From Oligoflexia bacterium (lineage in GTDB: Bacteria; Bdellovibrionota; UBA1018): a DNA stretch of 47,287 nt. Position 1 is the stretch's first letter. Each line of letters opens with the position of its first letter. A program made the translations under genes and the position numbers. A model generated the notes under the pieces. That model was not told the origin of the DNA. It searched no databases and was given only the letters and a program-made list of their open reading frames with translations. The stretch is taken from assembly GCA_903898645.1 (NCBI GenBank), contig CAIUGE010000025.1, positions 1 to 47,287 on the forward strand. The letters run 5' to 3'. Below are positions 1 to 33,606 of the stretch, piece by piece.

Positions 1-117
1 ACTAAATTCGAAAATCCAGATTCTCAAAGCCAATGCAAGAGGATTTAGGAATTTTGAAAATTATCGGATAGCTATTCTTTTTTATTGCGGAAAAATGGAA
101 ATGATGCCTTAGAGGTT

Positions 118-1626
118 ATGCACAGAAAAGCCCGAAGAGCCCACATTTTTGTGATTACATTACTTACAGTCATATCTGTGCATCATGCTTCAGCGACACT
201 GACGCTCAACCAGATCAACGACAAGAATCTAAATAAGCTATGGATAAACACCTTTGTAGCAAACGCTACAAACAACGCTGTCAAGCAGACCTTTTCCTCT
301 TTTCTAGAAAATTCTGAAAACACTATTAATATTCTCGTCCGTGAGGCTACGGACGCTGATTCGAATGCTGCCGGAAAAGCTCATGCTCTTTGTCGTACAA
401 GTCAGAATGCCTGTCAGTATGCTACGCTCACCGCTAAGACTGCTGCCGACACCCCTCAGGGCGACAGCAAGTACGCTCTTAATCACGCCATTGCTGACGC
501 CGCCACCCTTACTGCTGCTGCTGCTCTTGAAAGTGCAGCTACTGATGCTGCCATTAACCTTCCTATGTACACTGCCGACCTGCCTCATGACCAATATGCC
601 CCTATCCAGGCTAGAGCGAACCAGGAAGCTATTATTGCCACCTCCCGCGCTCTGCTTGCTGCTCGCGCTGTTGCCACACGCAATATTGATGCTATTGATT
701 CGACGACTACTGCTGCTATGACTGCCTCTGCCACTTTTCATATCACTCTTGAAAAAAGTATAAAAGCTCGCATGAGCGCCGATGACGCCGAACAGAGACG
801 CAAAGCTGTGAATGATGCCATGTCTTCTCTGGCATTTAATTTTCATGAAATGAATCGCACTCAAAATATTGCCCGCACTGCTCTCGCTCTCGCCAACCGT
901 ACTGGCACTACTGATGACAAGCTGCTAGCAGCTCTCGCCAACCTCGAAAGTGTCTGCACTCGCAGAAAGGCTACTCTTGATCGATCTCGAGATCTTTGTC
1001 TATTTTCCCATCTTAAGGATGCCGATAGCATTCGCGCTGCTGTTACCGAATCTCGTACCGATATTTCGGCCATTGACACGCTAGCTACAAACACTCTGGC
1101 TGATTTCCGGCAACTTGCGCCTGATTACCAAATTTCTGAAACTACCCATCCAGCGAGTGCCGCTTACGAACGCTTCACAAAGCTTGCTGCTCCTGACATG
1201 GCCACACACAATCTTGATGCCAAGGAGGCAGACGCTCGGGCAGCGACCACCAGTGCCGCTGCAAGCGCCTACCGTAACACTCTCCATGCTGCCAGCATTG
1301 CTCGTGCTGCTCGTGCTCAAGCCAATCAAACTGGCACCCTAGCCGATAATTTATCAGCTGCTCTTGCCGAGCTTGAACTTGCCTGCATCCAAAAAAAATA
1401 TACCCACGCTCAATCTCTAGCTCTTCTCCGGATGGCCAACTCTCCGAGTCATGACCATATTCGCTGTGCTATTAGCGCCATGGCCAAGGATTCTTTTACC
1501 GATATTCGCATTGCCGATGATCAAGCCGTAAAGGCACTGGCTTATTTTCGTAGAATTGCTCCTAACACCAAGATTTCTGAAGCTACGTATCCAGAGAGTG
1601 CTGCTTATGAACGTACCAGAAAATAA
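118..1626 (+). CDS. Exported alanine-rich helical protein with an internal duplication
   Basis: I do not recognise this protein (502 residues). The N-terminus is a Sec-type signal: basic residues (HRKARR), a hydrophobic stretch (FVITLLTVISV) and an Ala-x-Ala end near residue 25. I chose ATG 118, just after AGAGG, over an in-frame TTG at 85 that has no ribosome site. The mature chain is very rich in Ala, Thr, Asp and Leu, with no membrane segment, so it is probably helical and periplasmic or secreted. Residues about 246-355 and 389-502 are two copies of one unit: both run from a LANxTGT-like stretch through LA.LE..C..K to a shared ISE.T.P.SAAYER end. The gene converges on nadE, 13 bases away. 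It resembles the Ala-rich exported proteins at 11134-12213 and 37202-38209 in composition, not in clear sequence. Function is unknown; the coding call is fairly sure. Confidence 0.75.
   Translation: MHRKARRAHIFVITLLTVISVHHASATLTLNQINDKNLNKLWINTFVANATNNAVKQTFSSFLENSENTINILVREATDADSNAAGKAHALCRTSQNACQYATLTAKTAADTPQGDSKYALNHAIADAATLTAAAALESAATDAAINLPMYTADLPHDQYAPIQARANQEAIIATSRALLAARAVATRNIDAIDSTTTAAMTASATFHITLEKSIKARMSADDAEQRRKAVNDAMSSLAFNFHEMNRTQNIARTALALANRTGTTDDKLLAALANLESVCTRRKATLDRSRDLCLFSHLKDADSIRAAVTESRTDISAIDTLATNTLADFRQLAPDYQISETTHPASAAYERFTKLAAPDMATHNLDAKEADARAATTSAAASAYRNTLHAASIARAARAQANQTGTLADNLSAALAELELACIQKKYTHAQSLALLRMANSPSHDHIRCAISAMAKDSFTDIRIADDQAVKALAYFRRIAPNTKISEATYPESAAYERTRK
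850..1623 (+). repeat. Two ~110-residue protein-level tandem repeats
   Basis: Unit 1 spans about 850-1185 and unit 2 about 1280-1623 inside the Ala-rich gene. Both contain A.A.AN.TGT, then a LAALA.LE/LSAALAELE block, a C..(R/K)KAT/YT segment, and end with ISE.T(H/Y)P.SAAYER. The two copies are clearly diverged at DNA level, so this is an old duplication rather than a recent slippage product. Confidence 0.7.
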
Positions 1627-3644: not shown

Positions 3645-3645
3645 A

Positions 3646-8140: not shown

Positions 8141-8256
8141 TCACCGTGGACGCGCGCACCGGAATCCGAGATTCGCACTCCAAAAGGACGGCCCAGCATT
8201 CAATGCCAGAGCAAACACACCAGCATATACGCCAGTACCATAGTCACCACCACGGA
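8141..8256 (-). other. Candidate DGR variable region (VR)
   Basis: This stretch encodes IRGGDYGTGVYAGVFALALN and then the AGPSFWSANLGFRCARPR end. Positions where known templates usually carry AAY codons here hold D, Y, T, V, Y, A, F, W and A, while the scaffold residues are intact. Seventeen bases after the stop, a short palindrome GACGTCAACGTC (8113-8124) sits where some retroelements have a hairpin needed for retrohoming. This is pattern matching only, without the template in hand. Confidence 0.45.
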
Positions 8257-9223
8257 TAGCAGCAGCAGGAGCTCCATTGACGACTGCGCTAGCTGCTCCA
8301 TTAAATTGCCCTATTGAGGAACCATTAAGGTTCCAAGTATTCCCAGTACCGCTACCTACTGTACCTGGATTCTGAGTAGCTCCTGCAACGAATGAAGTCT
8401 GAGTAGGTCCCGCTTGCATAAGCATATCAGTCCATTCCCACAAATTACCTATCATATCCTGCACACCAAACTGACTGATACAAGATACAGCCGAACCAGA
8501 AACCCATGTAGCCCCTGCCATAGCAGTACTACGTAGTGCACCACCATTAATATTACATGCAGCAGCAGCACCATTGGACGCCGAGCCAACGCTCGAGCCC
8601 GTTGATGCTGGCATCACAGTCCCCATTGCTGACATTTGCCAAACAGCATCTGGGATCAGCTGCTTACCAGAATTTGCACATGCTACAATCGCTTGAAACC
8701 AAGTGATAGTTGTAGCAGGCTGCACATTAGGCTTCGATACAGCATAGCCTGCGTAGCCAGCTCCACTCATGTCATACGATGATGAAACGTACACACTCCC
8801 CGTCCCGCCAGTCACTGACCAAACACTTGCCTGATATTTATCCACACACCAGGATCCTACAGGCACCATCACGTCATTGCTGTTGCCTGTAGCACATGAA
8901 CGCAAAGTTGTTGTTGCATTCCATGATTGACTCGACCACACCGCACCATTATCTACAAGGACGTTACCTGATGTGCCTGCAGCAACTGGACTTACGGCAC
9001 TAGTGCTATTACCTAATAGAACTGCACCTGCCGGAATAGTACTCAGACCTGTTCCCCCACCTGAGACAGTCAGCGTGCTGCTCAGAATGCCGTTAATGGC
9101 AGTTGAGATGCCGGCGAAATTTGCATTCATCTGGGACGCTGATATCGATGAACCAGCAGAAAAAGAATTTGATATAGAAAAAATCGCATGCGCTGCGGTA
9201 ACATAAGACAAGAAGAACAGCAT
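8141..9223 (-). CDS. Exported FGE/C-type-lectin-fold protein with retroelement-type variable C-terminus
   Basis: About 360 residues. A short signal peptide ends at TAAHA. Next comes a low-complexity, tail-fibre-like section (SGGGTGLSTIPAGAVLLGN and following) of the kind found in phage fibres and surface adhesins. From about residue 110 the chain matches the formylglycine-generating-enzyme/sulfatase-modifying-factor family (a C-type lectin fold): VGSWCVDKYQ, DMIGNLWEW, and the end RGGDYG...GFRCAR. The last ~38 residues follow the layout of variable regions in diversity-generating retroelement targets: fixed RGG, AGVFAL, PS and GFRC with scattered unusual residues between. No reverse transcriptase or template repeat was seen in the window. 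I chose ATG 9223; TTG 9229 is the alternative. A catalytic formylglycine role is unlikely; surface binding is the better guess. Confidence 0.78.
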   Translation of the reverse strand: MLFFLSYVTAAHAIFSISNSFSAGSSISASQMNANFAGISTAINGILSSTLTVSGGGTGLSTIPAGAVLLGNSTSAVSPVAAGTSGNVLVDNGAVWSSQSWNATTTLRSCATGNSNDVMVPVGSWCVDKYQASVWSVTGGTGSVYVSSSYDMSGAGYAGYAVSKPNVQPATTITWFQAIVACANSGKQLIPDAVWQMSAMGTVMPASTGSSVGSASNGAAAACNINGGALRSTAMAGATWVSGSAVSCISQFGVQDMIGNLWEWTDMLMQAGPTQTSFVAGATQNPGTVGSGTGNTWNLNGSSIGQFNGAASAVVNGAPAAAIRGGDYGTGVYAGVFALALNAGPSFWSANLGFRCARPR

Positions 9224-9355
9224 ACCCAATCACCCCCACGCACTCCTTTCGGTACCTCCATTTCTTTGCTAGAGCGCCTGTTTCGCCAGGATTTAAGAGC
9301 GTGATTAAAAAAAGATAGCGATATGCGTTATTGAAGCATATACCAAGATGACATT

Positions 9356-13958: not shown

Positions 13959-16244
13959 CTAACTTTTCAACCTATGCTGCACTTCCATAGCTGTGATAAC
14001 AGCCATATTAACCACATCATTCACATCGGAGTTTTGCTGTAAAACCGCTACCGGCCGATTCATCCCAACAAGGATTGGCCCTATAGCTTCTGCACCCCCA
14101 AGTCTCGATAAGAGCTTGTAGGCGATATTCCCTGACTGCAAGTCAGGGAATATCAAAATATTTGCATCCCCGGGTACTGCATTGAACGGGAAGCTCTCCA
14201 ACGAATTCTCAGGCATCACCGCTGTATCAGCCTGCATCTCCCCATCAATAATCAACGATGGCTTCAATTCTTTTACTATCCGCGTTGCCTCTTTCATCTT
14301 CAGTGCAGCAGGATGTGAACTTGAACCAAAGTTCGAGAACGAAAGCATTGCCACACGTGGCTCTTCATGCATAAAACTCCGTGCCAAATCTGCCGTCTCA
14401 AGCGCAATCTGCGCAAGCTCCGCTGCCTGAGGATCAATATTGACCGTCGTATCTGCAAACCACAGCACACGTTTTTTAAAGACCAACATATAAATCCCAG
14501 CTAAGCGCATCCCAGGCTTTGCCCCAATAACCTGAATGGCAGGACGCAATGTGTCAGGATAACTTTGAGTCAAGCCGTTAATAAGGCCATCTGCATGGTG
14601 AGACGCTACCATCATAGAACCAAAATAATTGGTCTGCCGCATCAACTGCCGAGCACCCGCAGCCGTGAGCCCCTTACGTTCACGCGCTGCAAAAAATCGA
14701 TGCGCATAGTCTTGAAAAAACTCATTCCGAGAAGGACGAATGACTTTGACCCCGCGGAGTGCCTCAGTCAACCCAAGCTTTTCGATACGTTCAGCAATAA
14801 GGACGTCGTTACCCAATAAAATAGGCTCAGCAATACCCTCCTCACGTATGATCTGTGCTGCTCGCAAAATCTTTACATTATCCCCTTCAGGAAACACCAA
14901 AGTAATCTTCTCATTCCGAGTCTTCACGCCATCTTTGATCTTATTTTTAATGCCACGCATCACAGTATACGTTGAGCCCAAAAGTCTCTCTAACTGCTCA
15001 CGGTACTGCACCATTTCTACATTGCGGCGAGCCACACCTGAATCCATTGCAGCCTGCGCCACAGCTGGCGCTACCCACAAAAGAACCCGACTATCAAAAG
15101 GCTTCGGAATCAAATACTCACGGCCAAAACGAAAGCGCTGACCACCATAGGCTCGAGAGACACTTTCTGGCACATCTTCCTTTGCAAGCGATGCAAGCGC
15201 CTTGACTGCCGCCATCTTCATTGCTTCATTGATGCTCGTCGCCTGCGTATCAAGCGCCCCACGGAAAATAAAAGGAAACCCAAGGACATTATTGACCTGA
15301 TTTGGATAATCAGAACGCCCCGTTGCCATAATCGCATCTGGTCGCACTTCTAAAACTTCTTCCGGCGTTACTTCAGGATCAGGATTCGCCATTGCAAAAA
15401 TAATAGGGTCTTTGGCCATACGCTTGACCATTGCACCTGTAATCCCACCTTTGACCGACACCCCAACAAATGCATCCGCATCTACCAAAGCTTCTGCAAT
15501 CGTCCTCGCCTCTGTATCACGCGCAAATCGCTCTTTATAGGGGTTCATACCTTCAGTACGCCCCTTATAGATCACGCCCTTAGAATCACACATAAAAAGA
15601 TTCTTGAGCTGCACACCCAAGTTCACATAGAGGTTTGCACACGCAATAGCTGCCGCACCGCCTCCACAAAAAACGACACGCACCTGCGCAATATCCTTCC
15701 CCACAACCTCAATAGCACTCAAAAAAGCTGCAGCACTGATAACAGCCGTCCCATGCTGATCATCATGGAATACAGGTATCTTCAGCTTCTTCTTGAGCTC
15801 TTCTTCAATATAAAAACACTCAGGCGCCTTGATATCCTCAAGGTTGATACCCCCAAAAGTTGGCTCCAACATCTCACAAGCCGCTATCACCTGATCAGGC
15901 GTCTTGGCCGCAAGCTCGATATCAAAAACATCGATATCCGCAAACTTTTTAAATAAGACACCCTTGCCCTCCATCACAGGCTTGGCTGCAAGTGGCCCAA
16001 TGTTACCCAGACCCAAAACAGCGGTCCCATTGGTCACAACAGCAATCAGGTTGCCCTTCGCCGTATACTCGTAGACAGACTCAGGCCTTTCAACGATCTC
16101 CCGACATGGCTCAGCCACGCCTGGCGAATACGCCAACGAGAGATCATGTTGCGTTGTAACATTTTTTGATGCAACGACCTCTATCTTACCTTTACGTCCA
16201 CGAGAATGGTAGTCGAGCGCTTCTTGTACCTGTGTGTCTTTCAT
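13959..16244 (-). CDS. maeB: NADP-dependent malic enzyme with phosphotransacetylase-like C-terminus
   Basis: Decarboxylates malate to pyruvate with NADP+. About 761 residues, the large MaeB type. The malic domain shows [42 protein letters not shown] and [12 protein letters not shown] (metal and substrate contacts), then the NADP Rossmann motif [10 protein letters not shown]. The C-terminal ~330 residues ([19 protein letters not shown] onward) are homologous to phosphotransacetylase and usually regulate through acetyl-CoA rather than catalyse. I chose ATG 16244 ([19 protein letters not shown]), which matches the usual family start; ATG 16301 and 16313 would add 19-23 residues. It heads a minus-strand unit with the START-like gene. 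Confidence 0.95.
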
Positions 16245-16371
16245 AGGCCCAAGGCTATCTTGATACTTCAAGATTCGCAAGTGGAGTCTCGAGACGATCA
16301 TGATGCGTTGCATTACTCTCTCTTAGTCCAGTTGCAGAATAACGAACTCCAAGCTCTCTTTTGAACACACA

Positions 16372-19300
16372 ATGTCCGAGAAGACATCAATGTCTTTGAA
16401 AATGCTTTTCATCATTTTTCAACTCTCTTGCCTCAGCCTTCCAGCTTATGCGGCTCCAGAATGTCAGAAGCATACATTCAAACTGTCTGCTATCATCGCA
16501 ACTTTTAAGGACACCCCGCCACAACTCAAAGATCTATCTAGTTACATGAAACATATAACAGAAAAAGAACATCACCCTGAGCGCATCGTTCACACACAAC
16601 AACAGATCCTGCGATTAAGTAGTTACCAATTCGATAAACAACACCGACCGCGAGAACTCATTGTGAACGCCATCGACGCCTACGCTCGAGCAAATGATCC
16701 GAAAAAGGACAACATAGTTTCCATTACATCAGCAAAAGAAACACTCACCATCAAAGATACCGGACCAGGCATGACATTAGCAAATATCTTTAATGATCTC
16801 TTGGTACCCAATCGCTCTCAAAATATCGGACTACTTGATCCAGAAAACGCCACAAAGGGCGTGACAGGAAAATTTGGTCAAGGATTTTTCTCCATCTTGT
16901 CCTATCTTCAAGAACAAGACGACTCCATAACTCTTGAGACACAAAATAAGGAATCGAAAATAAAGCTCCATTTTTACAAAAAAGACAATGAGATCCACAT
17001 AGGCATAGAAGAAATAGAGAATCGTGATTCAACAGGAACAACAATAACTATACACTCCTCAGATCTCGAAGAATCCGAAGTTCAAGAAACCATCCGGGAT
17101 ACATTCAAATTTAACAATAACGCAAAAATACTACTCAATGACAAAAACATTCACGCAAAAGACGACATAACGACACTGACGATCGGAGAACATAACCATA
17201 CTGGCTTCATTCGGATCATCGACAAAGACAAGCCTTCACAAGGGTCTGGCACACTCTACCTCCTTGTCAATGGAGTGCAAATCCAAAAAATGCATCATCA
17301 AGGCATCAATATATACAAAAATATGGTCATTGACCTCCCTGCCACAGTAGCGCTTACCCCAGACCGCGGCACATTCAACTCAAAAGATCCAGAAATTAAT
17401 GCATTCCTAGAAAATGCCCTTCATTCCATCGCAAACAGAAAAGACGGCACAACAATCATGAACACTCTTTATCCTTTTATTAAAAATACCAAGATACAAA
17501 TAGCACCCGACAAGTATCAATTGTCACAAAAAGTCGCGCCAGCAATACCCTTATTCAAAGACAGTGAGTACATCAATGGAGAAAAGATTCAATTACTACA
17601 CCCTGAATTATTTTACTCCAGCTCACGACTGTCAACAGTTCGTAGCCTCACGGACGATTATATCGAAATCTTCAAAGCTCCACTGATAACTACGATAAAA
17701 ATATTTGAAGAAAAAGAACGCAGACCTATCCTTCTTGTACCAGACTCAACAGATGTAAATTCTGCATTATTTCGAAGAATACTAAACAACATTCAAACAG
17801 AAAGGGCTCTACTTGACCCAAAGGATCGGGAGCCATGGGTAACGCCACACTTACATAGTTATTCCAAAAAAACAGCAGCAACAGTGGCGACAGCAGTGCC
17901 AAAAAAAGATACATTTTTTACACCTTTGAACAAAATTTCTTTTTATCTCGAATGGGCCAAATGTGGTTCAATTATTTTTAACGACCAATTCCCTATGGCT
18001 CAAAAAATATACAAAAAAGCCAAGGAAATAGCTCCAGAATCTCAAGATCTAGAAGCATCCATTGAATACATAATACTTAGAATAAGAAAAAAAGAAAAAT
18101 CATTCTCATGTGTACCATTACCTCACCTAAGTGTAACTAAGACCATCACAGGCACCCCTCACCACACCTCACCAACCATCGGCAATCCAATAGTGCTAGC
18201 ACAGGATGTCGCTTCAGCATCTTTAAACGCACTTCATACTCTCGAATACCCAGAAGAAGAATTGCAATTGCTGCACTTTATGTGCAATATGAAAAAATTC
18301 TTTTCCGTCAATACGCGTATCTACGACTCGATGTTAGAAGAGTTTATAGATATAGAAGAAAAATCACTTTTAAATAAAAGAATGCATCAGTTGCAAGAAC
18401 TCATTAGCTTCATAGGCACACCTAGTGCAATTACTTCTCGATCACACCTCCAGCAACATTATTATTCGTCACTCATCAACATACAGCGCAACAAATTGTC
18501 GTTAGACTATAGCCCTGACTCTATAAAGAATTTCTTTGATTGTATAGACTCATCGACATCTCCTATTACCCATCAAGCATGGAAGAACATTAAGATGTTG
18601 GAACTTGATTGCAGCATCACAAAAACGCCTCCATTTATAAAAGCAGAAATTATTTCAACAAAAAAAGAATTTGATGCTGAATCTGCAGAAAAATTAAAAA
18701 AAATAATTAAATTTTTTGTTAATTCAAGATTTCGCGGTATAGATACCTATGCTCAAAAATACTTCTATTTTATTTTTGAAAAAATAATAAAAAAAACCCT
18801 ATCAGATACAGATGTCGCACTGATAGAGAAACTAGGATCTGAGTTTTATAAAACTATCAGAATAGAATGCCATTCTGCACCAGAGTGCTACAATAAGTAC
18901 ATTTCTCAAAACGTCTTTTCACCAGAAACGATACCCTACGTAGCACAACTATTCTTTGGAAAAATAAAACCTCTTCCTGGTAACGAATTCATCAAACAAG
19001 ACGGTACGTTTACACGCATAGTAGACAACCCACGTGTACAAGAAATATTAGGCAATGACAAAAAATTAATAGCAAGTCAATTTGTTATTTCAATAAATCA
19101 AAATAACGATCAAAAATGGTTAGAAGAATGCATTAAAAATGCACTCGAGGCAAATGCATCAAAAATCGACTTCCGCGTTTTTCTCAGAGAAAGAAAAATG
19201 TCTGTAGAAATAGAAGACAATGGCGACGGTCTGCCTGCATCAGAAATGCACACATTTTACATACCAACCCTCAGTACGAAAGAAAAAAAAGAAGGAAACA

Positions 19301-20766
19301 TTAATTTCGGACATGGATTTTTTCAACTTTTTCAATATTTTGACAACGTTGTAGTCGACAGTACACACAACAATAAGACACACCGCATCCATCTTCGATT
19401 AACGAACAATCCATCAAATCCTATAGATTTTTACGAAGAAGAAATTGTGCCGGCATTTCCTCATAGTGGAATTAAAATATCAGCGCAACGATCACAAGAC
19501 TTCGACCCCTACGATGTGGCATTTATGTATGGAAAATTTTTCGCATCCACAGGAGGCCTCTCATCCATAGAGGCAAATTTTAATAATGAAAAAATAGACA
19601 CGAACCTACTGAGCCCTTTCAAAGAAGAGCTTTTAATTCATAAAGACAAAGATTGCAGCACCTACCTCAGTACCTCTCCTGGCGTGTATTTTCACTCTAT
19701 AAAACATAGCGATCAGCTGCCAACAGAGCTCTTCTCAGCTGCGGTCAAAAAGACTTTAACTGACTGTAATCAAACATTGGCCATTAACATTACAGATCCA
19801 AGCATCACGCAAAACGCAGGTCGCACCAACCTGCCAATCACGAAGTACTATGGAAAAATCCAAGAAGGAGCCATAGCTGCTATTATGAGAGATTTCATAA
19901 TAAAAATAAAAGATAATACTTTAGGTAAGTATGACTTTTTTTATGAAATGAAAAGTTTACAAACCGAAAAAAAAGAACCCCTAAATATAAGAAACATAAA
20001 AACAATAGAAGAGAAAGACTTTACATATGCCCTCATTAATACACCTCTATACAAGTCGACCCACTCTTTAATTGACATTAAAGAGCTTATTAAAAATATC
20101 CTTACAGAAAAAGGAATGATCGATACATATGGAAGATACACCCTCAAAAAAGTCGATGAAGACACGTGGAAGACCATAAAGCACACTTTACAATCAAAAA
20201 CCAACTTAAAAGAAGAAATTCTGCAGATTGTGCAGAGATTCGAGAGTGAAATAAATAGACATATTGAATCAATGCTGCAACAAAAAAATACTGACATTGC
20301 CCCGTTGACTGGTAGCAAGCACTATTTGTCTGATATCGAAATAGATAACGAGCAAAAAGCAACTCATTTGCACAAGCTGAGAAACTGGATGACATCAGCA
20401 GCTGTACATTTTTACAACAAAACAATTAACATGAATTTCTATAAAGCAGCCGACAGCTCGCAGGCACATGCTTATAAGGGGGGCAACATTATTGGCATCA
20501 ATTTACTCAATGGCCCTCTCGAAATATTTGAAACACTCGAAAAAGCCTGCCACAGTAAAGACCTTCAGGCACAAGAAAAAATAAACATCGCTCTCCACGT
20601 CCTCCTGACGCATGAGCTCGTCCATCTTGATGAACATCCCGATCAAGCAACTCATGATAAAGAATTTTTCGATAAGCAAGCAGATAAACTCATGCATATT
20701 GTATACAATGCCAAACTTTTTCAGAGCACACTGTGCACACAGTTCCTGCCATCTCCGCAGCCATAA
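16372..20766 (+). CDS. Exported tandem GHKL-ATPase protein with C-terminal HExxH metallopeptidase-like domain
   Basis: 1464 residues; I know no named family with this layout. A signal peptide (KMLFIIFQLSCLSLPAYA) ends near residue 27; ATG 16390 is an alternative start. GHKL module 1, about 75-390: N-box E95-x3-N99-x2-D102, DTGPG at 129-133, GKFGQGF at 166-172, a TGTTITI strand, then a transducer-like part ending LTPDRGT. A helical linker follows, about 400-890. GHKL module 2, about 900-1200: E919-x3-N923 with Glu at 926, DNGDG at 949-953, NFGHGF at 978-983, and an equivalent QNAGRTN element. Near the C-terminus is HELVHLDEH (1414-1422), a zincin signature with a possible third His ligand. Both ATP sites look intact, odd for a protein leaving the cytosol, where ATP is absent. 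The 18.6-20.3 kb part is clearly A+T-rich. It is a lone gene, divergent from maeB. A secreted effector or a chaperone-protease are possibilities, both unproven. Confidence 0.85.
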   Translation: MSEKTSMSLKMLFIIFQLSCLSLPAYAAPECQKHTFKLSAIIATFKDTPPQLKDLSSYMKHITEKEHHPERIVHTQQQILRLSSYQFDKQHRPRELIVNAIDAYARANDPKKDNIVSITSAKETLTIKDTGPGMTLANIFNDLLVPNRSQNIGLLDPENATKGVTGKFGQGFFSILSYLQEQDDSITLETQNKESKIKLHFYKKDNEIHIGIEEIENRDSTGTTITIHSSDLEESEVQETIRDTFKFNNNAKILLNDKNIHAKDDITTLTIGEHNHTGFIRIIDKDKPSQGSGTLYLLVNGVQIQKMHHQGINIYKNMVIDLPATVALTPDRGTFNSKDPEINAFLENALHSIANRKDGTTIMNTLYPFIKNTKIQIAPDKYQLSQKVAPAIPLFKDSEYINGEKIQLLHPELFYSSSRLSTVRSLTDDYIEIFKAPLITTIKIFEEKERRPILLVPDSTDVNSALFRRILNNIQTERALLDPKDREPWVTPHLHSYSKKTAATVATAVPKKDTFFTPLNKISFYLEWAKCGSIIFNDQFPMAQKIYKKAKEIAPESQDLEASIEYIILRIRKKEKSFSCVPLPHLSVTKTITGTPHHTSPTIGNPIVLAQDVASASLNALHTLEYPEEELQLLHFMCNMKKFFSVNTRIYDSMLEEFIDIEEKSLLNKRMHQLQELISFIGTPSAITSRSHLQQHYYSSLINIQRNKLSLDYSPDSIKNFFDCIDSSTSPITHQAWKNIKMLELDCSITKTPPFIKAEIISTKKEFDAESAEKLKKIIKFFVNSRFRGIDTYAQKYFYFIFEKIIKKTLSDTDVALIEKLGSEFYKTIRIECHSAPECYNKYISQNVFSPETIPYVAQLFFGKIKPLPGNEFIKQDGTFTRIVDNPRVQEILGNDKKLIASQFVISINQNNDQKWLEECIKNALEANASKIDFRVFLRERKMSVEIEDNGDGLPASEMHTFYIPTLSTKEKKEGNINFGHGFFQLFQYFDNVVVDSTHNNKTHRIHLRLTNNPSNPIDFYEEEIVPAFPHSGIKISAQRSQDFDPYDVAFMYGKFFASTGGLSSIEANFNNEKIDTNLLSPFKEELLIHKDKDCSTYLSTSPGVYFHSIKHSDQLPTELFSAAVKKTLTDCNQTLAINITDPSITQNAGRTNLPITKYYGKIQEGAIAAIMRDFIIKIKDNTLGKYDFFYEMKSLQTEKKEPLNIRNIKTIEEKDFTYALINTPLYKSTHSLIDIKELIKNILTEKGMIDTYGRYTLKKVDEDTWKTIKHTLQSKTNLKEEILQIVQRFESEINRHIESMLQQKNTDIAPLTGSKHYLSDIEIDNEQKATHLHKLRNWMTSAAVHFYNKTINMNFYKAADSSQAHAYKGGNIIGINLLNGPLEIFETLEKACHSKDLQAQEKINIALHVLLTHELVHLDEHPDQATHDKEFFDKQADKLMHIVYNAKLFQSTLCTQFLPSPQP

Positions 20767-20841: not shown

Positions 20842-21504
20842 CTACTGACGCTCTTCAAGCTCCGGCTTAGGCTCTGGAGGCCTTTCTTCTTCAGGCGGAG
20901 GCGGCACTTCTGCAGGCGGCGGTTCAACAATGGATGGCGGAGGTGGCGTTTCCGCCGCAGGCCTCCGTGTTATGATTTTCTCTGGGTGGTAGACTATCAT
21001 CTTTGCCTCAGCGGGTGGCGGCAATGATGGCTGGCTTACTCGAACAGGAGATCCTATGCTCGGCTCACGACAAGCGAGCGTTTCTTTCAATTCATGTTTT
21101 ATGGGCATCCAGAGTTTAATACTCCAGGCCACACAAAGAATACTCACACCACTAGCAAAAATCACCCAAGCTTGATTCGGAATTTCTAATCTTACTGATT
21201 GTACCGGCGGAATGTACACTTCTAGAGCTTGAGGGCGAAACGTGTCACTCTTCGATCGCTCTAAAGAATCAAGCAGGCTCTGTGCACCACCAAGCGCAAG
21301 CTGGAGCACATCCATAACACTCATAAAAGGATGTTCATCACTGACTTCAGGAACGCTCTGCCCTTTTTTTAAACTCTCTGATGGCAGGGCGCGCCATGTC
21401 GGGCGAACCACCTTGTCATGGAGCGCTTGAACAAGGGCATCATGTGCGTAGGGCCCATAGAGACGACCCCGCGCAACAATTATCCACTCCTTCGTATCTC
21501 CCAT
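20842..21504 (-). CDS. GYF-like domain, single membrane helix and Pro-rich tail
   Basis: 220 residues. Residues ~6-55 (EWIIVARGRLYGPYAHDALV and on) have the GYF_2 pattern: a Trp strand, the GPY turn, a helix and a return strand. Such domains bind proline-rich peptides or other partners in the cytosol. One membrane helix follows (AWVIFASGVSILCVAWSIKLW, about 118-138). The last ~45 residues are nearly all Pro, Glu and Ala (TPPPPSIVEPPPAEVPPPPE). With no signal peptide, the N-domain is likely cytosolic and the tail periplasmic, a TonB-like layout without a TonB domain. It is 42 bases after pnp. Function unknown; GYF assignment is moderate. Confidence 0.7.
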   Translation of the reverse strand: MGDTKEWIIVARGRLYGPYAHDALVQALHDKVVRPTWRALPSESLKKGQSVPEVSDEHPFMSVMDVLQLALGGAQSLLDSLERSKSDTFRPQALEVYIPPVQSVRLEIPNQAWVIFASGVSILCVAWSIKLWMPIKHELKETLACREPSIGSPVRVSQPSLPPPAEAKMIVYHPEKIITRRPAAETPPPPSIVEPPPAEVPPPPEEERPPEPKPELEERQ

Positions 21505-27468: not shown

Positions 27469-28274
27469 AAGAACGCCTACTTACTCATCACATACACACT
27501 TTGCAACCCTATCGCACAAGCTGGCGCTCCCAACCACCGGGTGCACTCCTCATACTAGGTAGCGAGGCATTAGGATCACATCTTGTTATGGCGCTCCTAA
27601 CGCAAGATTTTCTCTGTGATACAAAAGATTCCTGCAACCAATGCCCATCATGCATGGCCTTGAAAGAAAATAGACACTTTTCAGCAACATGGATGTATGA
27701 CGTCAAAATAGACGCCATTCGAGAACTTTTAGCATCTCGCAGCATCTCCCGTGTCCAGCATCGATGCGTTATCCTACCTGATATTGACACTATGAGCCTT
27801 GGCGCAGCCAATGCCCTTCTTAAAATTCTTGAAGAACCCCCCCCTGCATGGACATTCATCCTGTCCTCTATGCATGGCGATAAAATTCCAGCCACGATTC
27901 GCTCCCGGTGCCAGAAGCTGCATCTCAAACCCTTGTGTCTACCAGGAGAGACTTTTCTTGCGCCTCTGGCCTCAAGTCATCCATTGACGTATAAAAAGCT
28001 GACACAAACTGATGCAAGCCGTATACTGGTAGACGCACTCTTAGGAAAAGAAAAAATAGCTGCACTCACAGACTGGGCAACCAAGGAGTTTGAAGACTTT
28101 ATGATCCTACTTGAACACCTCACGCATGCAGGTCTTTTAGGCACTGCACCCATTACGCGTTCCCAGCATTTTTGGCTCCATATGACTGATATTTTGCATG
28201 ATGCTCGAAGTGACTCCAATTGCAATCGGAAGATCCTTATCCAACACCTTTTTTGGGAGCTCATGCGTGCTTAA
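27465..28274 (+). CDS. holB: DNA polymerase III delta-prime subunit
   Basis: Clamp-loader wrench subunit, 269 residues. The usual Walker A is absent (GALLILGSEALGSHL), as in other delta-prime proteins that do not bind ATP. The zinc module reads CDTKDSCNQCPSC. IDTMSLGAANALLKILEEPP and SS...IPATIRSRCQ (sensor 1 and SRC motif) are typical. It starts GTG 27465, with GTGA overlapping the tmk stop. The tmk-holB pair is common in bacteria. The C-terminal third is poorly conserved. The end overlaps the first MCE ATPase by 8 bases. Confidence 0.93.
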   Translation: MKERLLTHHIHTLQPYRTSWRSQPPGALLILGSEALGSHLVMALLTQDFLCDTKDSCNQCPSCMALKENRHFSATWMYDVKIDAIRELLASRSISRVQHRCVILPDIDTMSLGAANALLKILEEPPPAWTFILSSMHGDKIPATIRSRCQKLHLKPLCLPGETFLAPLASSHPLTYKKLTQTDASRILVDALLGKEKIAALTDWATKEFEDFMILLEHLTHAGLLGTAPITRSQHFWLHMTDILHDARSDSNCNRKILIQHLFWELMRA

Positions 28275-28926
28275 AGTAGATGGATTGTCCTATAAAAAAC
28301 TTTTTCAAAACATATCATTCAACTTACCTCAAGGTACCCATGCAAGCCTCATCGGGCCATCAGGCTCAGGCAAAAGTACTCTTTTACGCATTATTGCAGG
28401 ACTCCTCCCGCCAACACAGGGATCAATGATTCATGCGTCAAACAACATTGGGATGCTCTTTCAAAGAAATGCTCTTTTTGATTCGCTGACAGTTGAAGAA
28501 AACCTCCTCTTCCCCCTACGAGAAAGATGTAGGATGGTTGGACAAAAAGCGCGCGCCAAGGCATCAGCGGCTCTAGAGGCGGTCGATCTTGCTGGCACAG
28601 AAGAAAACTACCCTTATGAGCTGTCAGGCGGTATGCAAAAAAGACTCAGCATCGCAAGAGCCCTCATCGTGCATCCCGACCTCTTACTCGCCGATGAGCC
28701 AACAGCTGGCCTTGACCCCATTACCTCAGACACCATTGGCTGCCTCCTTGATAGACTTGTCTCCGAACACGGCACAACCCTCCTCACTGTTTCAAGTGAT
28801 ATGCAGCAAGCGCTCCGAGGCTCCTCTATCTTTTTCCTCGATCAAGGAACCTTTTTAAAAACAAACACGACAGAAATCTGCTCGCACCATGCACTCAAAT
28901 GCTTTTTTTATGGGCTTTCTTTATGA
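28267..28926 (+). CDS. MCE/Mla-type ABC transporter ATPase, subunit 1
   Basis: About 219 residues, MlaF family. Walker A GPSGSGKST, Q-loop MLFQRNALFD, signature LSGGMQKR, Walker B LLLADEPTAGLDP. The switch-His position reads TVSSD: His is replaced by Ser, so its own ATP site is likely weak. The ABC signature is canonical. I start it at GTG 28267 (VLKVDGLSYKKLFQ), 8 bases inside the end of holB; an upstream ATG at 28198 would add a non-ABC stretch. It ends in ATGA shared with subunit 2. It drives lipid transport between the two membranes together with the permeases below. Confidence 0.92.
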   Translation: MLKVDGLSYKKLFQNISFNLPQGTHASLIGPSGSGKSTLLRIIAGLLPPTQGSMIHASNNIGMLFQRNALFDSLTVEENLLFPLRERCRMVGQKARAKASAALEAVDLAGTEENYPYELSGGMQKRLSIARALIVHPDLLLADEPTAGLDPITSDTIGCLLDRLVSEHGTTLLTVSSDMQQALRGSSIFFLDQGTFLKTNTTEICSHHALKCFFYGLSL

Positions 28927-29633
28927 GTATTATTTTTTCTGGGATCTCAACAGCTTTTGGCACAAAACAGGTTTTAAAAGATATCAATTTTGAAGTTTCG
29001 ACGATGACATTTCTGCTCGGAAAAAGCGGCGCAGGCAAATCTGTCACCCTCAAACATATCATGGGTCAAATTCCTATCCAACAAGGCTCAATTACACTCG
29101 ACGGTTCAATTCTTTCACCGCAATCACGCAGCCTTTGCGGCATGGTCTTTCAGCAGCCAGCACTTTTCGACTCCATGAATATTTTTGACAACATCGCCTT
29201 TGGGCTCAAAACTGGCAATAAAAAGGAGCGTGTTTTAGAACTCCTCCATCATGTCGACCTTGATCCCAGCATCGTCACCAAGATGCCTCATGATCTCTCC
29301 TATGGCATGCAAAAACGTGTTTCTATTGCGCGTACCTTAGCACCAAATCCACGCTACCTCCTATTTGATGAACCGACGACAGGATTAGACCCGCTTGCAA
29401 CGCGTCTCATTTCAGACCTCATTATGCATGTCGCAAATACCTGCCATGTCACATGCCTTGTGGTCTCACACGATATTGGAAGTGCTCTTCGCATAGCAAA
29501 CCATATTCTCTTCTTGGATGACTGCCGTATCGTTGCCTCAGGTGATCCGAAAACAATTCAACTATCCACGAACCCACTTGTTCAGGCATTTCTTGGGAGG
29601 CACGCAGTATGCTCAGATTCATTCGTGAACTAG
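28923..29633 (+). CDS. MCE/Mla-type ABC transporter ATPase, subunit 2
   Basis: About 236 residues, MlaF family. Walker A GKSGAGKS, Q-loop MVFQQPALFD, Walker B YLLFDEPTTGLDP and an intact switch His (VVSHD). The signature reads LSYGMQKR, with Gly replaced by Tyr. This is the mirror of subunit 1: paired as a heterodimer, one composite site would be fully consensus (Walker A, B and His of subunit 2 with the signature of subunit 1) and the other degenerate. The start is ATG 28923, overlapping subunit 1 by four bases. The C-terminal ~25 residues (ASGDPKTIQLSTNPLVQAFL) are typical of MlaF-type ATPases. Confidence 0.93.
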   Translation: MSIIFSGISTAFGTKQVLKDINFEVSTMTFLLGKSGAGKSVTLKHIMGQIPIQQGSITLDGSILSPQSRSLCGMVFQQPALFDSMNIFDNIAFGLKTGNKKERVLELLHHVDLDPSIVTKMPHDLSYGMQKRVSIARTLAPNPRYLLFDEPTTGLDPLATRLISDLIMHVANTCHVTCLVVSHDIGSALRIANHILFLDDCRIVASGDPKTIQLSTNPLVQAFLGRHAVCSDSFVN

Positions 29634-30373
29634 GTGCTATCGTTTTATTTACAAAATCCATTTTGTACGCCCTCTGGATAGGCCCTGCAAGCATGTGGCA
29701 TGAAATTTTACATGAAACATCTCGCATTTTCTGGCGATCACTGCAAACGATTAGTTTTGCCGGTTTTTTTGTAGGCGCAATCCTCATACTGCAGTTTGAT
29801 ACTATCCTGGCACGCTATGATGCCCGCCTCTACTTAGGTGGCGTCTGCATGTCAACTATAATCCGCGATGTCGGTCCCTTAATCATTGCATTTCTCCTTG
29901 TAGGTAAGGTAGGGGCCTATACAGCAGCCGAACTGGGCACCATGCGCGTCACTGAACAGATTGATGCCCGCGAATGCCTAGGCGCCGAATCTTTCGTGAC
30001 CCTTCTGGCACCTCGCTGGATGAGCATCGTGCTTGCAAGTCTGACGTTACTTATAGCAGGACTCAGCATCAGTATTGGAGGTGCCTTTTTTCTTGCACTC
30101 ATCCATTCTAGCATTAACATGCATGAATTTCTCTTCTTAGTGCCTCGTTTTAATGGCTTCAGCACTTTAGGAAGTGGCCTTCTTAAGTCATTTATCTACG
30201 GCCTACTTGTTGCAACACTTGCATGTTTTTATGGTTTTTATGCAAAAAACGGAGCAGCAGGCGTTGGCCGCGCCGTCACGAAGGCGACAGTCGGAACACA
30301 TTTTTCGATTATTGTAGCCAATTACCTCACAGGCACACTTCTCACTGCCCTCGAACATCTTGGAGGCCCCTAA
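29609..30373 (+). CDS. MlaE-type permease, subunit 1
   Basis: 254 residues, MlaE/YrbE family. About five membrane segments. Family signatures seen: DVGPLIIAFLLVGKVGAYTAAELGTMRVTEQIDA (coupling region) and FYGFYAKNGAAGVGRAVT near the C-terminus. It starts inside ATPase 2 (25-base overlap) with GGGAGG as ribosome site. The paired second permease follows directly, so the membrane core is probably a heterodimer. Confidence 0.92.
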   Translation: MLRFIRELGAIVLFTKSILYALWIGPASMWHEILHETSRIFWRSLQTISFAGFFVGAILILQFDTILARYDARLYLGGVCMSTIIRDVGPLIIAFLLVGKVGAYTAAELGTMRVTEQIDARECLGAESFVTLLAPRWMSIVLASLTLLIAGLSISIGGAFFLALIHSSINMHEFLFLVPRFNGFSTLGSGLLKSFIYGLLVATLACFYGFYAKNGAAGVGRAVTKATVGTHFSIIVANYLTGTLLTALEHLGGP

Positions 30374-31101
30374 TGTGGCGCATGCTTGCATCCATTCTTA
30401 TCGATATACCTCACTTTCTCATACATCCAAGACGCTTTAGGTGGCGAGAAACACTAGAGGCCTTAAGTACCCTTGGCGCAGGAAGCTTTCAGGTCATTAC
30501 GCTTGCAACAGCTTTTGCAGGCATTGTCATCACACATGAAATGGCCTGGCATATGCAAAAGGCGCTCCACTCTGTTGCCATGGTACCTGGCATGAGTGCA
30601 CAATTTATTGTTCGGGAACTTGCTGTTGCCGTTCCCGCTCTCCTCCTTGTCTCCAAAGTAGGTGCATCATTAACAGCTGAAATTGCAACTATGAAGATCA
30701 CCGACCAAATAGACGCCCTTCGTCTCCTTGGTATTAACCCGCTTGATTATCTTCTTTACCCACGCTTAATTGCATGTACCGTTGCGGGAGGAGCTTTAAC
30801 CCTCATCTCCATTCTTGTCACTCTTCTGTGCTCTGTTGCTACAGCTCGCGCCTACCATTTTTCACCACCAGAATACCTCGCACTTGCTGGACATTTCATG
30901 AAATTGACTGATGTTATCCAGGCCGTTATCAAAGGCTCAACCTATGGCGCAATCATTCCGATTATGAGCTGTGCCTACGGGTTTTGTTGCCGCGGAGGCG
31001 CGGAAGGCGTCGGCCATACAACGACGCAGTCAGTAGTTGCTTCGACATTGTGCGTCATAGTGCTTGATTTTATCCTGACTATGCTTTTTTCTCTCATATA
31101 A
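30373..31101 (+). CDS. MlaE-type permease, subunit 2
   Basis: 242 residues, MlaE/YrbE family. KVGASLTAEIATMKITDQIDALRLLG and CAYGFCCRGGAEGVGHTTTQSVV are the two family signatures. It has about five membrane segments. It diverges strongly from permease 1, so this is not a recent duplication. The start ATG 30373 shares one base with the stop of permease 1 (TAATG). Confidence 0.92.
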   Translation: MWRMLASILIDIPHFLIHPRRFRWRETLEALSTLGAGSFQVITLATAFAGIVITHEMAWHMQKALHSVAMVPGMSAQFIVRELAVAVPALLLVSKVGASLTAEIATMKITDQIDALRLLGINPLDYLLYPRLIACTVAGGALTLISILVTLLCSVATARAYHFSPPEYLALAGHFMKLTDVIQAVIKGSTYGAIIPIMSCAYGFCCRGGAEGVGHTTTQSVVASTLCVIVLDFILTMLFSLI

Positions 31102-31146
31102 TGCAGAAAGGTGTGCGAGCATGCAAACGAAAGGAATCACTTTGAA

Positions 31147-31971
31147 ATGAAGCAACACGAACTTAAGGCAGGAGCCTTACTCCTTCTGGCTTTCGCCTCC
31201 ATTCTTGCTTTTGCATGGATCGTAGGTGTCAATAATCCGCTTTCTCACAGACTTCACCTCTATGTAACGTACCATTTTGCAGGTGGCATTGAGATTGGCT
31301 CTCCTGTCAGAGTTTCTGGCATTAAAGTAGGCCAAGTTGATACTATTGAATTTTACGCTATGCAAAAAAGCGAGGTCATCTCCAACAAAGAGCCCGGCAG
31401 CATGCAAGATGACAAAAATACCGCACAGGCACCAGTCCGTCTGAGGCTTTCTATTGACCCAAAAGCTGCAATCAGCATACGTCAAGACAGTAAATTTTAT
31501 ATCAATCTTGCCGGCGTTATCGGCGAGCGCTACATTGAGATCACACCAGGCCATAGAAACAAGGGGGAGATCCACGAAGGTGACCAACTCATTGGTACCG
31601 ACCCTCCACGCATCGACCAACTCCTTTCACAAAGTTTTGACCTTGCAGGTAAGATTGCCAGTCTCATTGAAGATAACAAAGACGACATCACCCACACTGT
31701 TGAACTCATGGTAAAACTCAGCACGAACCTGAATAAAACTCTCACCTGGGTGGAGCGAAGCGAATTATTTAAATCAGACCTTGGCAAACTCGTCACAAGC
31801 CTGCTTGCACTGAGCCAGGATCTGCACAAAATGACACAGAAAATTCATGGACCTGAAGGTGAACGTATGATGCAATTACTCAGCAAACTGATCCAACGAT
31901 TAGAACCGCTTGAGCAAAAAGCTATCCTTGATTTCTTTCAAAAAGAAGGCATTCGAGTGCACCTTTTTTAA
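31147..31971 (+). CDS. MCE-domain (MlaD-like) periplasmic lipid-transport protein
   Basis: About 274 residues. One N-terminal membrane helix (LKAGALLLLAFASILAFAWIVG) anchors it in the inner membrane. The MCE domain (about 35-155) starts YHFAGGIEIGSPVRVSGIKVG and holds LSIDPKAAISIRQDSKFYI and GVIGERYIEI. A charged insertion (residues ~78-100) sits inside it. The C-terminus is a helical tail (VELMVKLSTNLNKTLTWVER onward), suited to forming a tunnel in a hexamer. ATG 31147 was chosen (MKQHELKAG); GTG 31111 is in frame but lacks spacing. No MlaB or MlaC gene is near, so the shuttle partners are missing or elsewhere. Confidence 0.92.
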   Translation: MKQHELKAGALLLLAFASILAFAWIVGVNNPLSHRLHLYVTYHFAGGIEIGSPVRVSGIKVGQVDTIEFYAMQKSEVISNKEPGSMQDDKNTAQAPVRLRLSIDPKAAISIRQDSKFYINLAGVIGERYIEITPGHRNKGEIHEGDQLIGTDPPRIDQLLSQSFDLAGKIASLIEDNKDDITHTVELMVKLSTNLNKTLTWVERSELFKSDLGKLVTSLLALSQDLHKMTQKIHGPEGERMMQLLSKLIQRLEPLEQKAILDFFQKEGIRVHLF

Positions 31972-31974
31972 TCT

Positions 31975-33606
31975 ATGACAGGAATGTGGCTATTTTTTCT
32001 TAACATAGTGACTGTACAAGCAACCTTCAAGCGTCACACAGAATGCCTCAACCGAGAACACCCACCTTGCCACGGCGCAGCAGGGAGCTGCATTTTTAAC
32101 GATGACGGTCAACCCGGTGGATTTGTCGCAGATACTGCGACAGTCAGCTCCCGACGAGGGCGACACGCCTATATTCATCTCGATGCCGAGGTCTGTGACC
32201 ATGCCTCTGTCTCACCTTATGCTCGCATTGATAACTCTGCCAGTATTCGTGACTCAGCCCATATTGAAGGAAACGCTACTGTCCAAGATAAAGCCTCCGT
32301 CATACAAGAAGCTATGGTCTTAGGCCCCGTTCTGATTTCAGATAATGCTATTATCTCAGGCTCAGCCGTCATCACATCCTATGCTCATGTGCGGCAGAAC
32401 GCCCATATTACTGAACATGCCACGATTACTGGGCACGCTCAAATAGCAGGCAACGCCAAGATCCTTGGCTATGCTCAGATTTCTCAATATGCAGAAGTGC
32501 GCGACTATGCGCATGTATCAGGCCACGCTATGATCACCAACCATGCTAGAATTGGTGGCACCAGCCTTATATCCGGTCATACCCTCCTTCGGCATAGCTG
32601 TATTCTTTTTGACGCCCCCACCGTCCTTGATCATGCCACAATAGAAGGACGGGCCGTCTTAAGCGGAAACTCCATTGTCGCAAACCGTGCCCGTATATCA
32701 GGCACTAGCTTTATCCAAGGCAATGCCGCAATTTTTGAAAATGCTACTATCGTCAGTGACTCATCCCTCTCTGATGCATCCTGGATTGCAGGTGAAGAAA
32801 AAATACAACGAAAAATCTACCTACATAGTGCTCATACAGTAAGAAACAACCGTATTATTGACGAACAACGCCCCACTTACCAAGAAGCCAGCGTACTCTT
32901 TCATGCTTTCGCTCAGCGTAAAACACATAGCGACGAAGAAACATGGCTGGATGAAGTCATACTCAACGACCAGACTCTTTCTATTGACGAACTACCATCA
33001 TCTCTCATCGACTCTTGGATCCTCAAAAAAGCGCATGAACCCGCACTCTTTCAGAGCATCATCAGTCAAGCCGAGGATATTGTACTGAGATCCCCCACAG
33101 AACTTCAAATCTTTGAAGACACTATGAAATCACTCCCAGAAGACTTGAAACAAAAAATAAGCTGTGCATTTGGCGAGACTCTCCATAAGAGCAAAGAGAC
33201 AAAGAACAATCCTCTTTTCCAACTCCGAAAAACAAGTCCTGTTGAACAGCTGCGTATTCGCGTCCTTCGCCTTCGTATCGAACAAGGTCTGCGTCAATCG
33301 CACTGGACCCAAAATCCAGCACATAGGGATGCGGCAGAAACAACTGACTATAATATTTGGCTCTATGATAACACCTACGATTACATCACGCTCTTAAGTG
33401 TCCTAGAAGCGATTGAATCTCAAACTATTGATCATTTCATTCACCAGATGGTATCTTTTATCTCAAGCTTTCCAGAAAACGAGTATGCCGCAAGGCAAGG
33501 ATTCCTTGAGAGTTTCACTCACCTCTATGTCACAGGGCTCTTTCCCTCGGAAGGAATTCGCCAGACATACTACCATTTTATTCTTCGTTGCGGCCATCTG
33601 TATTAA
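31975..33606 (+). CDS. Exported left-handed beta-helix (hexapeptide-repeat) protein
   Basis: 543 residues. A short signal peptide (MWLFFLNIVTVQA) precedes a Cys-containing stretch (ECLNREHPPCHGAAGSC). Residues ~73-269 are hexapeptide repeats of the type A.I.(G/D).A.(I/V), e.g. NAHITEHATITGHAQIAGNA, giving about 33 hexapeptides or 11 helix turns. The last ~270 residues are helical, without repeats. Many such sugar or acyl transferases are cytosolic enzymes with a trimeric helix, but the signal peptide and lack of catalytic His context suggest a structural or binding role here. It starts 3 bases after the MCE gene, so it is likely part of that operon; ATG 31984 is an alternative start. Function unknown. 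Confidence 0.82.
   Translation: MTGMWLFFLNIVTVQATFKRHTECLNREHPPCHGAAGSCIFNDDGQPGGFVADTATVSSRRGRHAYIHLDAEVCDHASVSPYARIDNSASIRDSAHIEGNATVQDKASVIQEAMVLGPVLISDNAIISGSAVITSYAHVRQNAHITEHATITGHAQIAGNAKILGYAQISQYAEVRDYAHVSGHAMITNHARIGGTSLISGHTLLRHSCILFDAPTVLDHATIEGRAVLSGNSIVANRARISGTSFIQGNAAIFENATIVSDSSLSDASWIAGEEKIQRKIYLHSAHTVRNNRIIDEQRPTYQEASVLFHAFAQRKTHSDEETWLDEVILNDQTLSIDELPSSLIDSWILKKAHEPALFQSIISQAEDIVLRSPTELQIFEDTMKSLPEDLKQKISCAFGETLHKSKETKNNPLFQLRKTSPVEQLRIRVLRLRIEQGLRQSHWTQNPAHRDAAETTDYNIWLYDNTYDYITLLSVLEAIESQTIDHFIHQMVSFISSFPENEYAARQGFLESFTHLYVTGLFPSEGIRQTYYHFILRCGHLY

What the first reader, a model, noticed from the sequence alone, without database searches (positions are those of the whole stretch)
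16372..20766. Exported protein with two complete GHKL ATPase modules and a zincin site
The 1464-residue product has a signal peptide, two GHKL (Hsp90/gyrase/MutL-type) nucleotide-binding modules, each with N-box, DxGxG and Gly-rich lid motifs, and an HExxH near the C-terminus. Both modules carry a matching downstream element (LTPDRGT and QNAGRTN), so they arose by duplication. ATP-dependent enzymes normally stay in the cytosol, because the periplasm has no ATP. An exported version makes sense if the protein enters another cell, or if nucleotide is bound for another purpose. I know of no named family with this order of domains.
Basis: partly seen in the sequence, partly recalled or inferred. 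Interest (0 to 1): 0.88.

Follow-up and report, generated by a model that had tools for sequence, protein, structure and literature searches.

The report
Exported double Hsp90-like ATPase with protease
A poorly known bacterium encodes a large, apparently exported protein that joins two Hsp90-like ATP-using modules to a predicted zinc protease; the same unusual combination turns up rarely in four distant bacterial groups, some with known or suspected host- or prey-dependent members, and what it does is untested.

Summary
ORF 16372-20766 (+) encodes 1464 aa with a signal-peptide-like start, two GHKL (Bergerat) ATPase modules and a C-terminal HExxH zincin. Template-free models of both modules match Hsp90 best (Z about 18 and 16); module 1 also matches the Hsp90 middle domain. 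The zincin resembles WLM/Wss1/SprT proteases weakly and keeps HExxH plus a third His in 11 of 11 aligned copies.

It is a real but rare family: two copies in this genome, three in one Oligoflexia MAG, one (contig-broken) in another, and copies in single Caenarcanales and Patescibacteria genomes and five Omnitrophota genomes, there in long ORFs. First and second modules group separately, so the two-module design seems older than its spread. Starts look signal-like in six Bdellovibrionota and two Omnitrophota proteins, not in the Caenarcanales and Patescibacteria ones.

Best reading: a Sec-exported, ATP-driven remodelling protease acting where ATP exists, in or beside a prey or host cell. Anatomy is well supported; destination, ATP use and substrate are inferred. 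I found no description of this architecture in the papers searched.

The parts
16372..20766 (+). CDS, 1464 aa, GHKL-GHKL-zincin protein; the genes on both sides are on the minus strand
16372..16452 (+). Signal-peptide-like segment, residues 1-27 (hydrophobic 12-23, AYA before A28)
   Evidence: crude rule; no ATG/GTG/TTG between codons 11 and 59
16549..17121 (+). GHKL module 1, ATPase domain (about residues 60-250): E95, N99, D102; D129, G131, G133; G166-F172
   Evidence: the lid region (residues 150-169) had pLDDT under 50
17122..17610 (+). Middle/transducer region of module 1 (about residues 251-413), with R332 in LTPDRGT
   Evidence: model 46..386 aligns to Hsp90 ATPase plus middle domain; R332 invariant in 11 of 11
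17365..17367 (+). Arg332 codon, proposed equivalent of the Hsp90 catalytic-loop arginine
   Evidence: equivalence to Hsp90 is inferred, no residue-level superposition was seen
17611..19062 (+). Variable region between the modules (about residues 414-897); no convincing family match; only residues up to 560 were modelled, with low confidence
19063..19626 (+). GHKL module 2, ATPase domain (about residues 898-1085): E919, N923; D949, G951, G953; F979-F984
19822..19824 (+). Arg1151 codon in QNAGRTN, counterpart of Arg332
   Evidence: present in the 5 exported copies compared, G in 2 Omnitrophota copies; its place in the model has pLDDT under 50
20374..20721 (+). C-terminal WLM/SprT-like zincin domain (residues 1335-1450)
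20611..20625 (+). HELVH (residues 1414-1418), zinc-binding motif
20653..20655 (+). His1428, proposed third zinc ligand (THxxxFF)
   Evidence: invariant in 11 of 11

Best explanation
The protein is a Sec-exported ATP-driven remodelling protease. Two Hsp90-like units, each a Bergerat ATP-binding domain plus a middle-domain-like region with an arginine that completes the ATPase site, clamp and remodel a client protein, and the C-terminal WLM/Wss1-type zinc protease cuts it. Shown here by computation: the domains, their order, the conserved active-site residues, the signal-like start and the family's shared architecture. Inferred: that it hydrolyses ATP, that the modules act on the protease's substrate, and that it works where ATP is available, that is in or beside a prey or host cell after Sec export and a further step (possibly the type II system, whose secretin gene the genome carries).
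For: Both modules match Hsp90 best. Exported copies are divergent (26-33% identity to the window copy over module 1), yet 14 of 14 listed ATPase sites are invariant in module 1 (6 copies; background 41 of 392 columns) and 11 of 12 in module 2 (5 copies; background 38 of 485 columns) (the sites were partly picked knowing they were conserved). So nucleotide binding appears to be under selection although the proteins look exported. Zincin ligands are invariant in 11 of 11, and a twelfth copy (G748) has THELGH and a later TH. WLM matches 4 of 11 zincin domains (best E 1e-4), SprT-like 1 of 11 (E 0.088); the only PDB sequence hit is Wss1p (E 0.096). Signal-like starts by eye in 6 of 6 Bdellovibrionota copies and in the two Omnitrophota proteins whose upstream end is held. 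Two copies in the window genome and three in nKLKbin12. GspD family match over cut-off in the window genome, E 4.6e-141.
Against: The periplasm is taken to lack ATP (recalled), and no route into another cell was identified. The Caenarcanales and Patescibacteria copies have no signal-like start, so the ancestral function may be cytosolic. P0009 and P0010 have a possible later start (ATG at codons 31 and 29) that would skip the hydrophobic stretch, and in P0003 the signal-like start is an internal ATG, codon 25. The crude signal rule missed several starts. The window genome has no ATP/ADP translocase match and its lifestyle is unknown. Few genomes of this partly predatory phylum carry the family (3 of 290). 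WLM and SprT-like matches are below Pfam's cut-offs, and the window's own zincin alone hit neither, only two unrelated families at E 0.02 and 0.12. The zincin was not searched as a separate fold.
Confidence: 0.38

Rival explanations
1. Envelope or extracellular quality-control chaperone-protease that does not use ATP hydrolysis, or uses nucleotide only as a structural ligand, or uses nucleotide released outside the cell.
For: Signal-like start; a type II secretin gene is present; Hsp90-like fold. No signal for delivery into another cell is known here, though none was searched for beyond the start.
Against: The listed ATPase residues, including the N-box Glu and the Arg, are kept in the exported copies of both modules, more than a mere ligand pocket needs.
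Confidence: 0.25
2. Cytosolic protein in origin and function (for example protein quality control, or removal of DNA-protein crosslinks as recalled for WLM/SprT proteases), with the N-terminal hydrophobic stretch being something other than an export signal.
For: Caenarcanales and Patescibacteria copies lack a signal-like start; the protease is Wss1/SprT-like.
Against: Hydrophobic starts in 6 of 6 Bdellovibrionota copies and in the two Omnitrophota proteins whose upstream end is held; in the window gene no start codon would skip it and keep the conserved N-terminal segment.
Confidence: 0.15
3. Cell-surface adhesin or coat component in which the ATPase and zincin folds are structural, in the way proposed for giant ORFs of Omnitrophota.
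For: In Omnitrophota the cassette sits inside long ORFs; giant ORFs there were proposed to serve attachment or a coat (PMC10066038, passages).
Against: Active-site residues of all three enzymatic domains are conserved; the Bdellovibrionota copies are stand-alone proteins.
Confidence: 0.1

Closest known systems
Hsp90 family (HtpG, TRAP1, Grp94)
   Same: Bergerat ATPase plus middle-domain-like region with a conserved Arg; best fold matches
   Different: Two units in one chain, signal-like start, fused protease; no Hsp90 C-terminal domain was made out; separate HtpG genes of 638 and 656 aa were read in the related genomes G016 and G034
Sacsin-type ATPase repeats (NCBIfam NF047352; animal sacsin)
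   Same: Several Hsp90-like units in one long chain; best NCBIfam hit for 4 of 5 proteins scanned, 3 of 5 over the cut-off; sacsin has a proposed Arg474 like Hsp90 Arg380 (PMC9880540, passages)
   Different: Window protein is below the cut-off (40.3 against 50 bits); sacsin has J and HEPN domains (PMC9880540 and PMC3710099, passages); here a zincin ends the chain and the start looks like an export signal
WLM / Wss1 / SprT-like metalloproteases
   Same: HExxH plus a later His before an aromatic; weak WLM match in 4 of 11, SprT-like in 1 of 11; Wss1p is the only PDB sequence hit
   Different: Below Pfam cut-offs; fused to ATPase modules; apparently exported
Omnitrophota giant ORFs
   Same: Five of 285 Omnitrophota genomes searched carry the cassette, in frames of 1638 to 9878 aa
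   Different: The window protein stands alone (1464 aa); the passages seen of the published account do not mention this cassette

Membership tests
Hsp90 (HtpG/TRAP1) | Bergerat ATPase domain with N-box Glu/Asn, DxGxG, Gly-rich lid | tested here: met
Hsp90 (HtpG/TRAP1) | Middle domain following the ATPase domain | tested here: met
   module 1 model 46..386 aligns to TRAP1 92..451, Z 18.1; the same region of module 2 had low confidence
Hsp90 (HtpG/TRAP1) | Sequence match to the HSP90 family model NF010683 (cut-off 455 bits) | tested here: not met
   P0002 42.7 bits; P0001 not listed at E 0.1; no HSP90 family among the 5 Pfam hits of P0001
Hsp90 (HtpG/TRAP1) | C-terminal dimerisation domain | tested here: inconclusive
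   no compact match after the middle region; alignments at rmsd over 20 were not used
Sacsin N-terminal ATP-binding-like domain (NF047352) | Score over the curated cut-off of 50 bits | tested here: not met
   P0001 40.3, P0002 35.3; homologues P0005 51.7, P0006 55.7, P0008 53.9 meet it
WLM (PF08325) | Score over gathering cut-off (26 bits) | tested here: not met
   P0005 17.8 bits; the window zincin had no WLM hit at E 1, 4 of 11 members did
WLM / SprT-like zincins | HExxH plus third His ligand in a following motif | tested here: met
   11 of 11; that this His is the ligand is inferred
WLM / SprT-like zincins | Zinc-dependent proteolysis | not testable with these tools
   needs purified protein
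Sec-exported proteins | N-terminal signal peptide | tested here: inconclusive
   by eye, by a crude rule and by the positions of start codons; no trained predictor available
Known anti-phage defence proteins (PADLOC) | Profile match | tested here: not met
   0 families for P0001, P0002 and P0008; one weak hit in the ATPase region each for P0005 and P0006

The most novel reading that the evidence does not exclude
A secreted ATP-powered machine: a horizontally spread cassette in which two Hsp90-like motors drive a Wss1-like protease, sent by predatory or host-dependent bacteria into other cells and fuelled by the ATP found there. It would be, to my knowledge, the first exported GHKL ATPase that works in a target cell.
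Probability: 0.28. Interest if true: 0.87.

Novelty: new variant of a known kind. Interest (0 to 1): 0.63.

Why it matters
Hsp90-like ATPases are known as cytosolic or organellar machines that need ATP (recalled). A family with export-type starts that keeps its ATPase residues in both modules, with a protease attached, makes a direct question testable: does it bind and use ATP, and if so where? Its thin, scattered presence in Bdellovibrionota, Omnitrophota, Caenarcanales and Patescibacteria suggests exchange between lineages that include predators and symbionts.

Tried and rejected
HtpG confusion: in the phylum sample 80 of 290 genomes matched at E 1e-12 or better. I count 3 as carriers (G000, G034, and G260, whose contig numbers and coordinates equal those of G290, nKLKbin12). 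The other 77 have one match each, confined to the first ATPase region, nearly all in frames of about 620-700 aa. Of these 77 I read one (G016, an HtpG gene), and also the HtpG gene of carrier G034; the rest are judged by length and range. Weak hits in G032, G018 and G027 and G011 were treated as other GHKL proteins; of these only G032 was read (a sensor kinase). L035 (Limnohabitans) is a false hit.

Distribution counts, with their limits: same family as the window 2 of 35, class 2 of 58, phylum sample 3 of 290, class of nKLKbin12 1 of 129, class of the Caenarcanales genome 1 of 240, Omnitrophota 5 of 285, class of the Patescibacteria genome 1 of 380. Searches scored at most 2 candidates a genome, at most 4, and 44, 46, 47 and 113 used strict limits (1e-25 or 1e-22), so absences are not proof. 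Larger groups were sampled, not exhausted.

Mobile element: no match in phages or plasmids and no relative in viral contigs (a pattern scan with A2). Defence system: no PADLOC match for P0001. Energy parasite: no TLC match in G000; 1 of 5 genomes searched, G290, had two matches over the cut-off. Signals around the gene: promoter-like sites are no more than in shuffles (9 against 11.4), terminator-like sites are more (9 against 3.3), not followed up. A first scan of genome contigs with P0001 alone found nothing. Papers: eight searches listed none whose title or abstract start describes this architecture; the library holds no preprints and few subscription papers. No compact match specific to the zincin was listed, where Hsp90 fills the rows shown.

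The P values are descriptive, because the sites were chosen partly with knowledge of the alignment. Fragments: P0003, P0004 and P0007 are incomplete; they are rows of A3 but were left out of A2, A4 and A9. P0012 lacks the start of module 1; no module 2 is held for P0003. The tree has no second module of P0003 and P0007 and no first module of P0012, and carries the tool's warning of long branches. One search stopped with an error after printing its motif table; its unfinished part was run again.
Full report
Observation. The window holds a 1464-aa ORF at 16372-20766 on the + strand. It lies alone between minus-strand genes (a malic-enzyme-like gene at 13959-16313, and 20842-21504 followed by a PNPase-like gene; names are read from sequence and recalled). 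Pfam finds HATPase_c_3 in two stretches (E 9.1e-15) and HATPase_c (1.6e-9). A PDB sequence search gives Hsp90-type proteins in all 60 rows shown of 128, best E 3.7e-5.

Export signal. The start reads MSEKTSMSLKMLFIIFQLSCLSLPAYA|APEC. The ATG/GTG/TTG codons before codon 59 are 1, 7, 9 and 11, all ahead of the hydrophobic stretch. A start at codon 59 would remove a segment shared with relatives (FKLSAIIA here; FPLANLEA, FSLGQLIA, FALEDLIA in P0002, P0003 and P0005). All six Bdellovibrionota copies have hydrophobic starts by eye, but P0009 and P0010 have a possible later ATG (codons 31 and 29), and for P0003 the signal-like start is the ATG at codon 25. A crude rule called four of the six (P0001, P0003, P0009, P0010), found a core but no cleavage site in P0005, missed P0002, called neither the Caenarcanales nor the Patescibacteria start, missed the G748 giant, and called 1 of 18 cytosolic controls. 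No trained predictor was available.

ATPase modules. Template-free models were made from alignments of 11 and 12 sequences (mean pLDDT 67.5 and 68.8, mostly 80-95 in the ATPase domains, low in the lid of module 1, in linkers and in the middle region of module 2). Module 1 (residues 28-560) matches Hsp90: TRAP1 4z1i_C at Z 18.1, 270 residues, rmsd 4.1, covering the ATPase and middle domains. Module 2 matches the ATPase domains of TRAP1 and Grp94 at Z about 15-16, rmsd about 3, about 165-175 residues; rows with rmsd over 20 were not used. Profile comparison aligns module 1 with module 2 over 252 columns, probability 99.5, with R332 opposite R1151. Against a two-sequence HtpG profile, module 1 aligns over 163 columns (98.9) and module 2 over 152 (96.2), in the ATPase domain only. 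A residue-level superposition on Hsp90 was not available, and R1151 lies in a low-confidence part of its model, so this equivalence is inferred.

Zincin. Eleven C-terminal domains share H1414, E1415, H1418, H1428 and F1432 without exception; a twelfth, in the G748 giant, has THELGH and a later TH. The one other copy, ZLKRG04 (L033), ends within module 2 near its contig end. The model shows helix, three strands, helix, active-site helix, helix. WLM matches 4 of 11 members (best E 1e-4), SprT-like 1 of 11 (E 0.088); the window's own domain alone hit neither. The only PDB sequence hit is Wss1p at E 0.096. All are below family cut-offs, so I say WLM/Wss1/SprT-like, not a member.

Distribution. The window genome has a second copy. 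Named relatives: Oligoflexia bacterium VK_bin-2343 (its contig has the number and length of G034:C114, and G034 is in the window's family; the gene is split between contigs), Oligoflexia bacterium nKLKbin12 with three copies, Candidatus Caenarcanales DT_14, Omnitrophota ZLKRG04 and a Patescibacteria MAG. Sampling: 2 of 35 genomes in the family, 2 of 58 in the class, 3 of 290 in the phylum, 1 of 129 in the class of nKLKbin12, 1 of 240 in the class of the Caenarcanales genome, 5 of 285 Omnitrophota, 1 of 380 in the class of the Patescibacteria genome. No match in phages or plasmids, no relative in a pattern scan of viral contigs. NCBI places Oligoflexia in Bdellovibrionota and Caenarcanales in Vampirovibriophyceae.

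Evolution. In a tree of 11 first modules, 10 second modules and 2 HtpG, first modules form one group (80/93, in 78% of bootstrap trees) and second modules one group (96/98, in 96%). Several branches are long and the tool warns of false joins. The two-module design thus seems older than its spread across phyla; duplication versus fusion stays open. The patchy spread suggests horizontal transfer, which is inferred.

Export across the family. Besides the Bdellovibrionota copies, the two Omnitrophota proteins whose upstream end is held have signal-like starts by eye (G748; ZLKRG04, where an in-frame stop separates that start from the rest). The other three Omnitrophota frames are cut at the contig edge. 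The Caenarcanales and Patescibacteria copies have no such start. Export is thus a feature of some lineages.

Mechanism. Conservation of the ATPase residues in exported copies (14 of 14 listed sites in 6 copies of module 1, 11 of 12 in 5 copies of module 2; background 41 of 392 and 38 of 485 columns) argues that nucleotide matters where the protein acts. With a zincin at the end, the simplest machine is an Hsp90-like clamp that remodels a client for cleavage. Where it finds ATP is unknown. The genome has a GspD match and no ATP/ADP translocase match. Omnitrophota are described as having host-dependent traits and giant ORFs linked to predation or attachment (PMC10066038, passages), which fits but does not prove a role in cell-cell attack.

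Verdict. Plain HtpG, a histidine kinase or a chance HExxH do not explain the protein. It is a new variant that combines known domain kinds; no description was found in eight paper searches, which cover open-licence papers only.

Noticed in passing
L076 and L079 (G748:C44:1-36000): A 9878-aa open frame in an Omnitrophota genome starts with a signal-like stretch and holds the GHKL-GHKL-zincin cassette near its held 3' end (it runs off the contig); two membrane-like segments lie between module 2 and the zincin.
   Followed up: partly
L033:1-1100: Upstream of the 1638-aa Omnitrophota frame, the same frame holds a signal-like start followed by an in-frame stop.
   Followed up: partly
L065:15949-17370: An exported astacin-like peptidase (HEIGHTVGLWHEH) lies near one nKLKbin12 copy, with a PLD-like gene at 1662-4037 (resemblances recalled).
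   Followed up: no
L032:3681-5984: A patatin-like phospholipase gene (GGGTRS motif, recalled) sits next to the Caenarcanales copy.
   Followed up: no
L009:6143-6835: A pseudopilin-like gene lies close to the second copy in the window genome (resemblance recalled).
   Followed up: no
L032, L034, L075, L077, L078 (module 2): Second modules outside Bdellovibrionota have lost the first Gly of DxGxG, while the Bdellovibrionota ones keep it.
   Followed up: partly
28198-31971: Mla/Mce-like lipid transport cluster: two ABC ATPases, two permeases and an MlaD-like protein (recalled).
   Followed up: no
31975-33606: Exported-looking protein with many short repeats (pattern like NATVxDxAxV), perhaps a left-handed beta-helix.
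   Followed up: no
41813-42901: Gene resembling a penicillin-insensitive murein endopeptidase (HTSGQDADIGF), recalled motif.
   Followed up: no
8141-9229: Exported-looking protein with a formylglycine-generating-enzyme-like C-terminal part, recalled resemblance.
   Followed up: no
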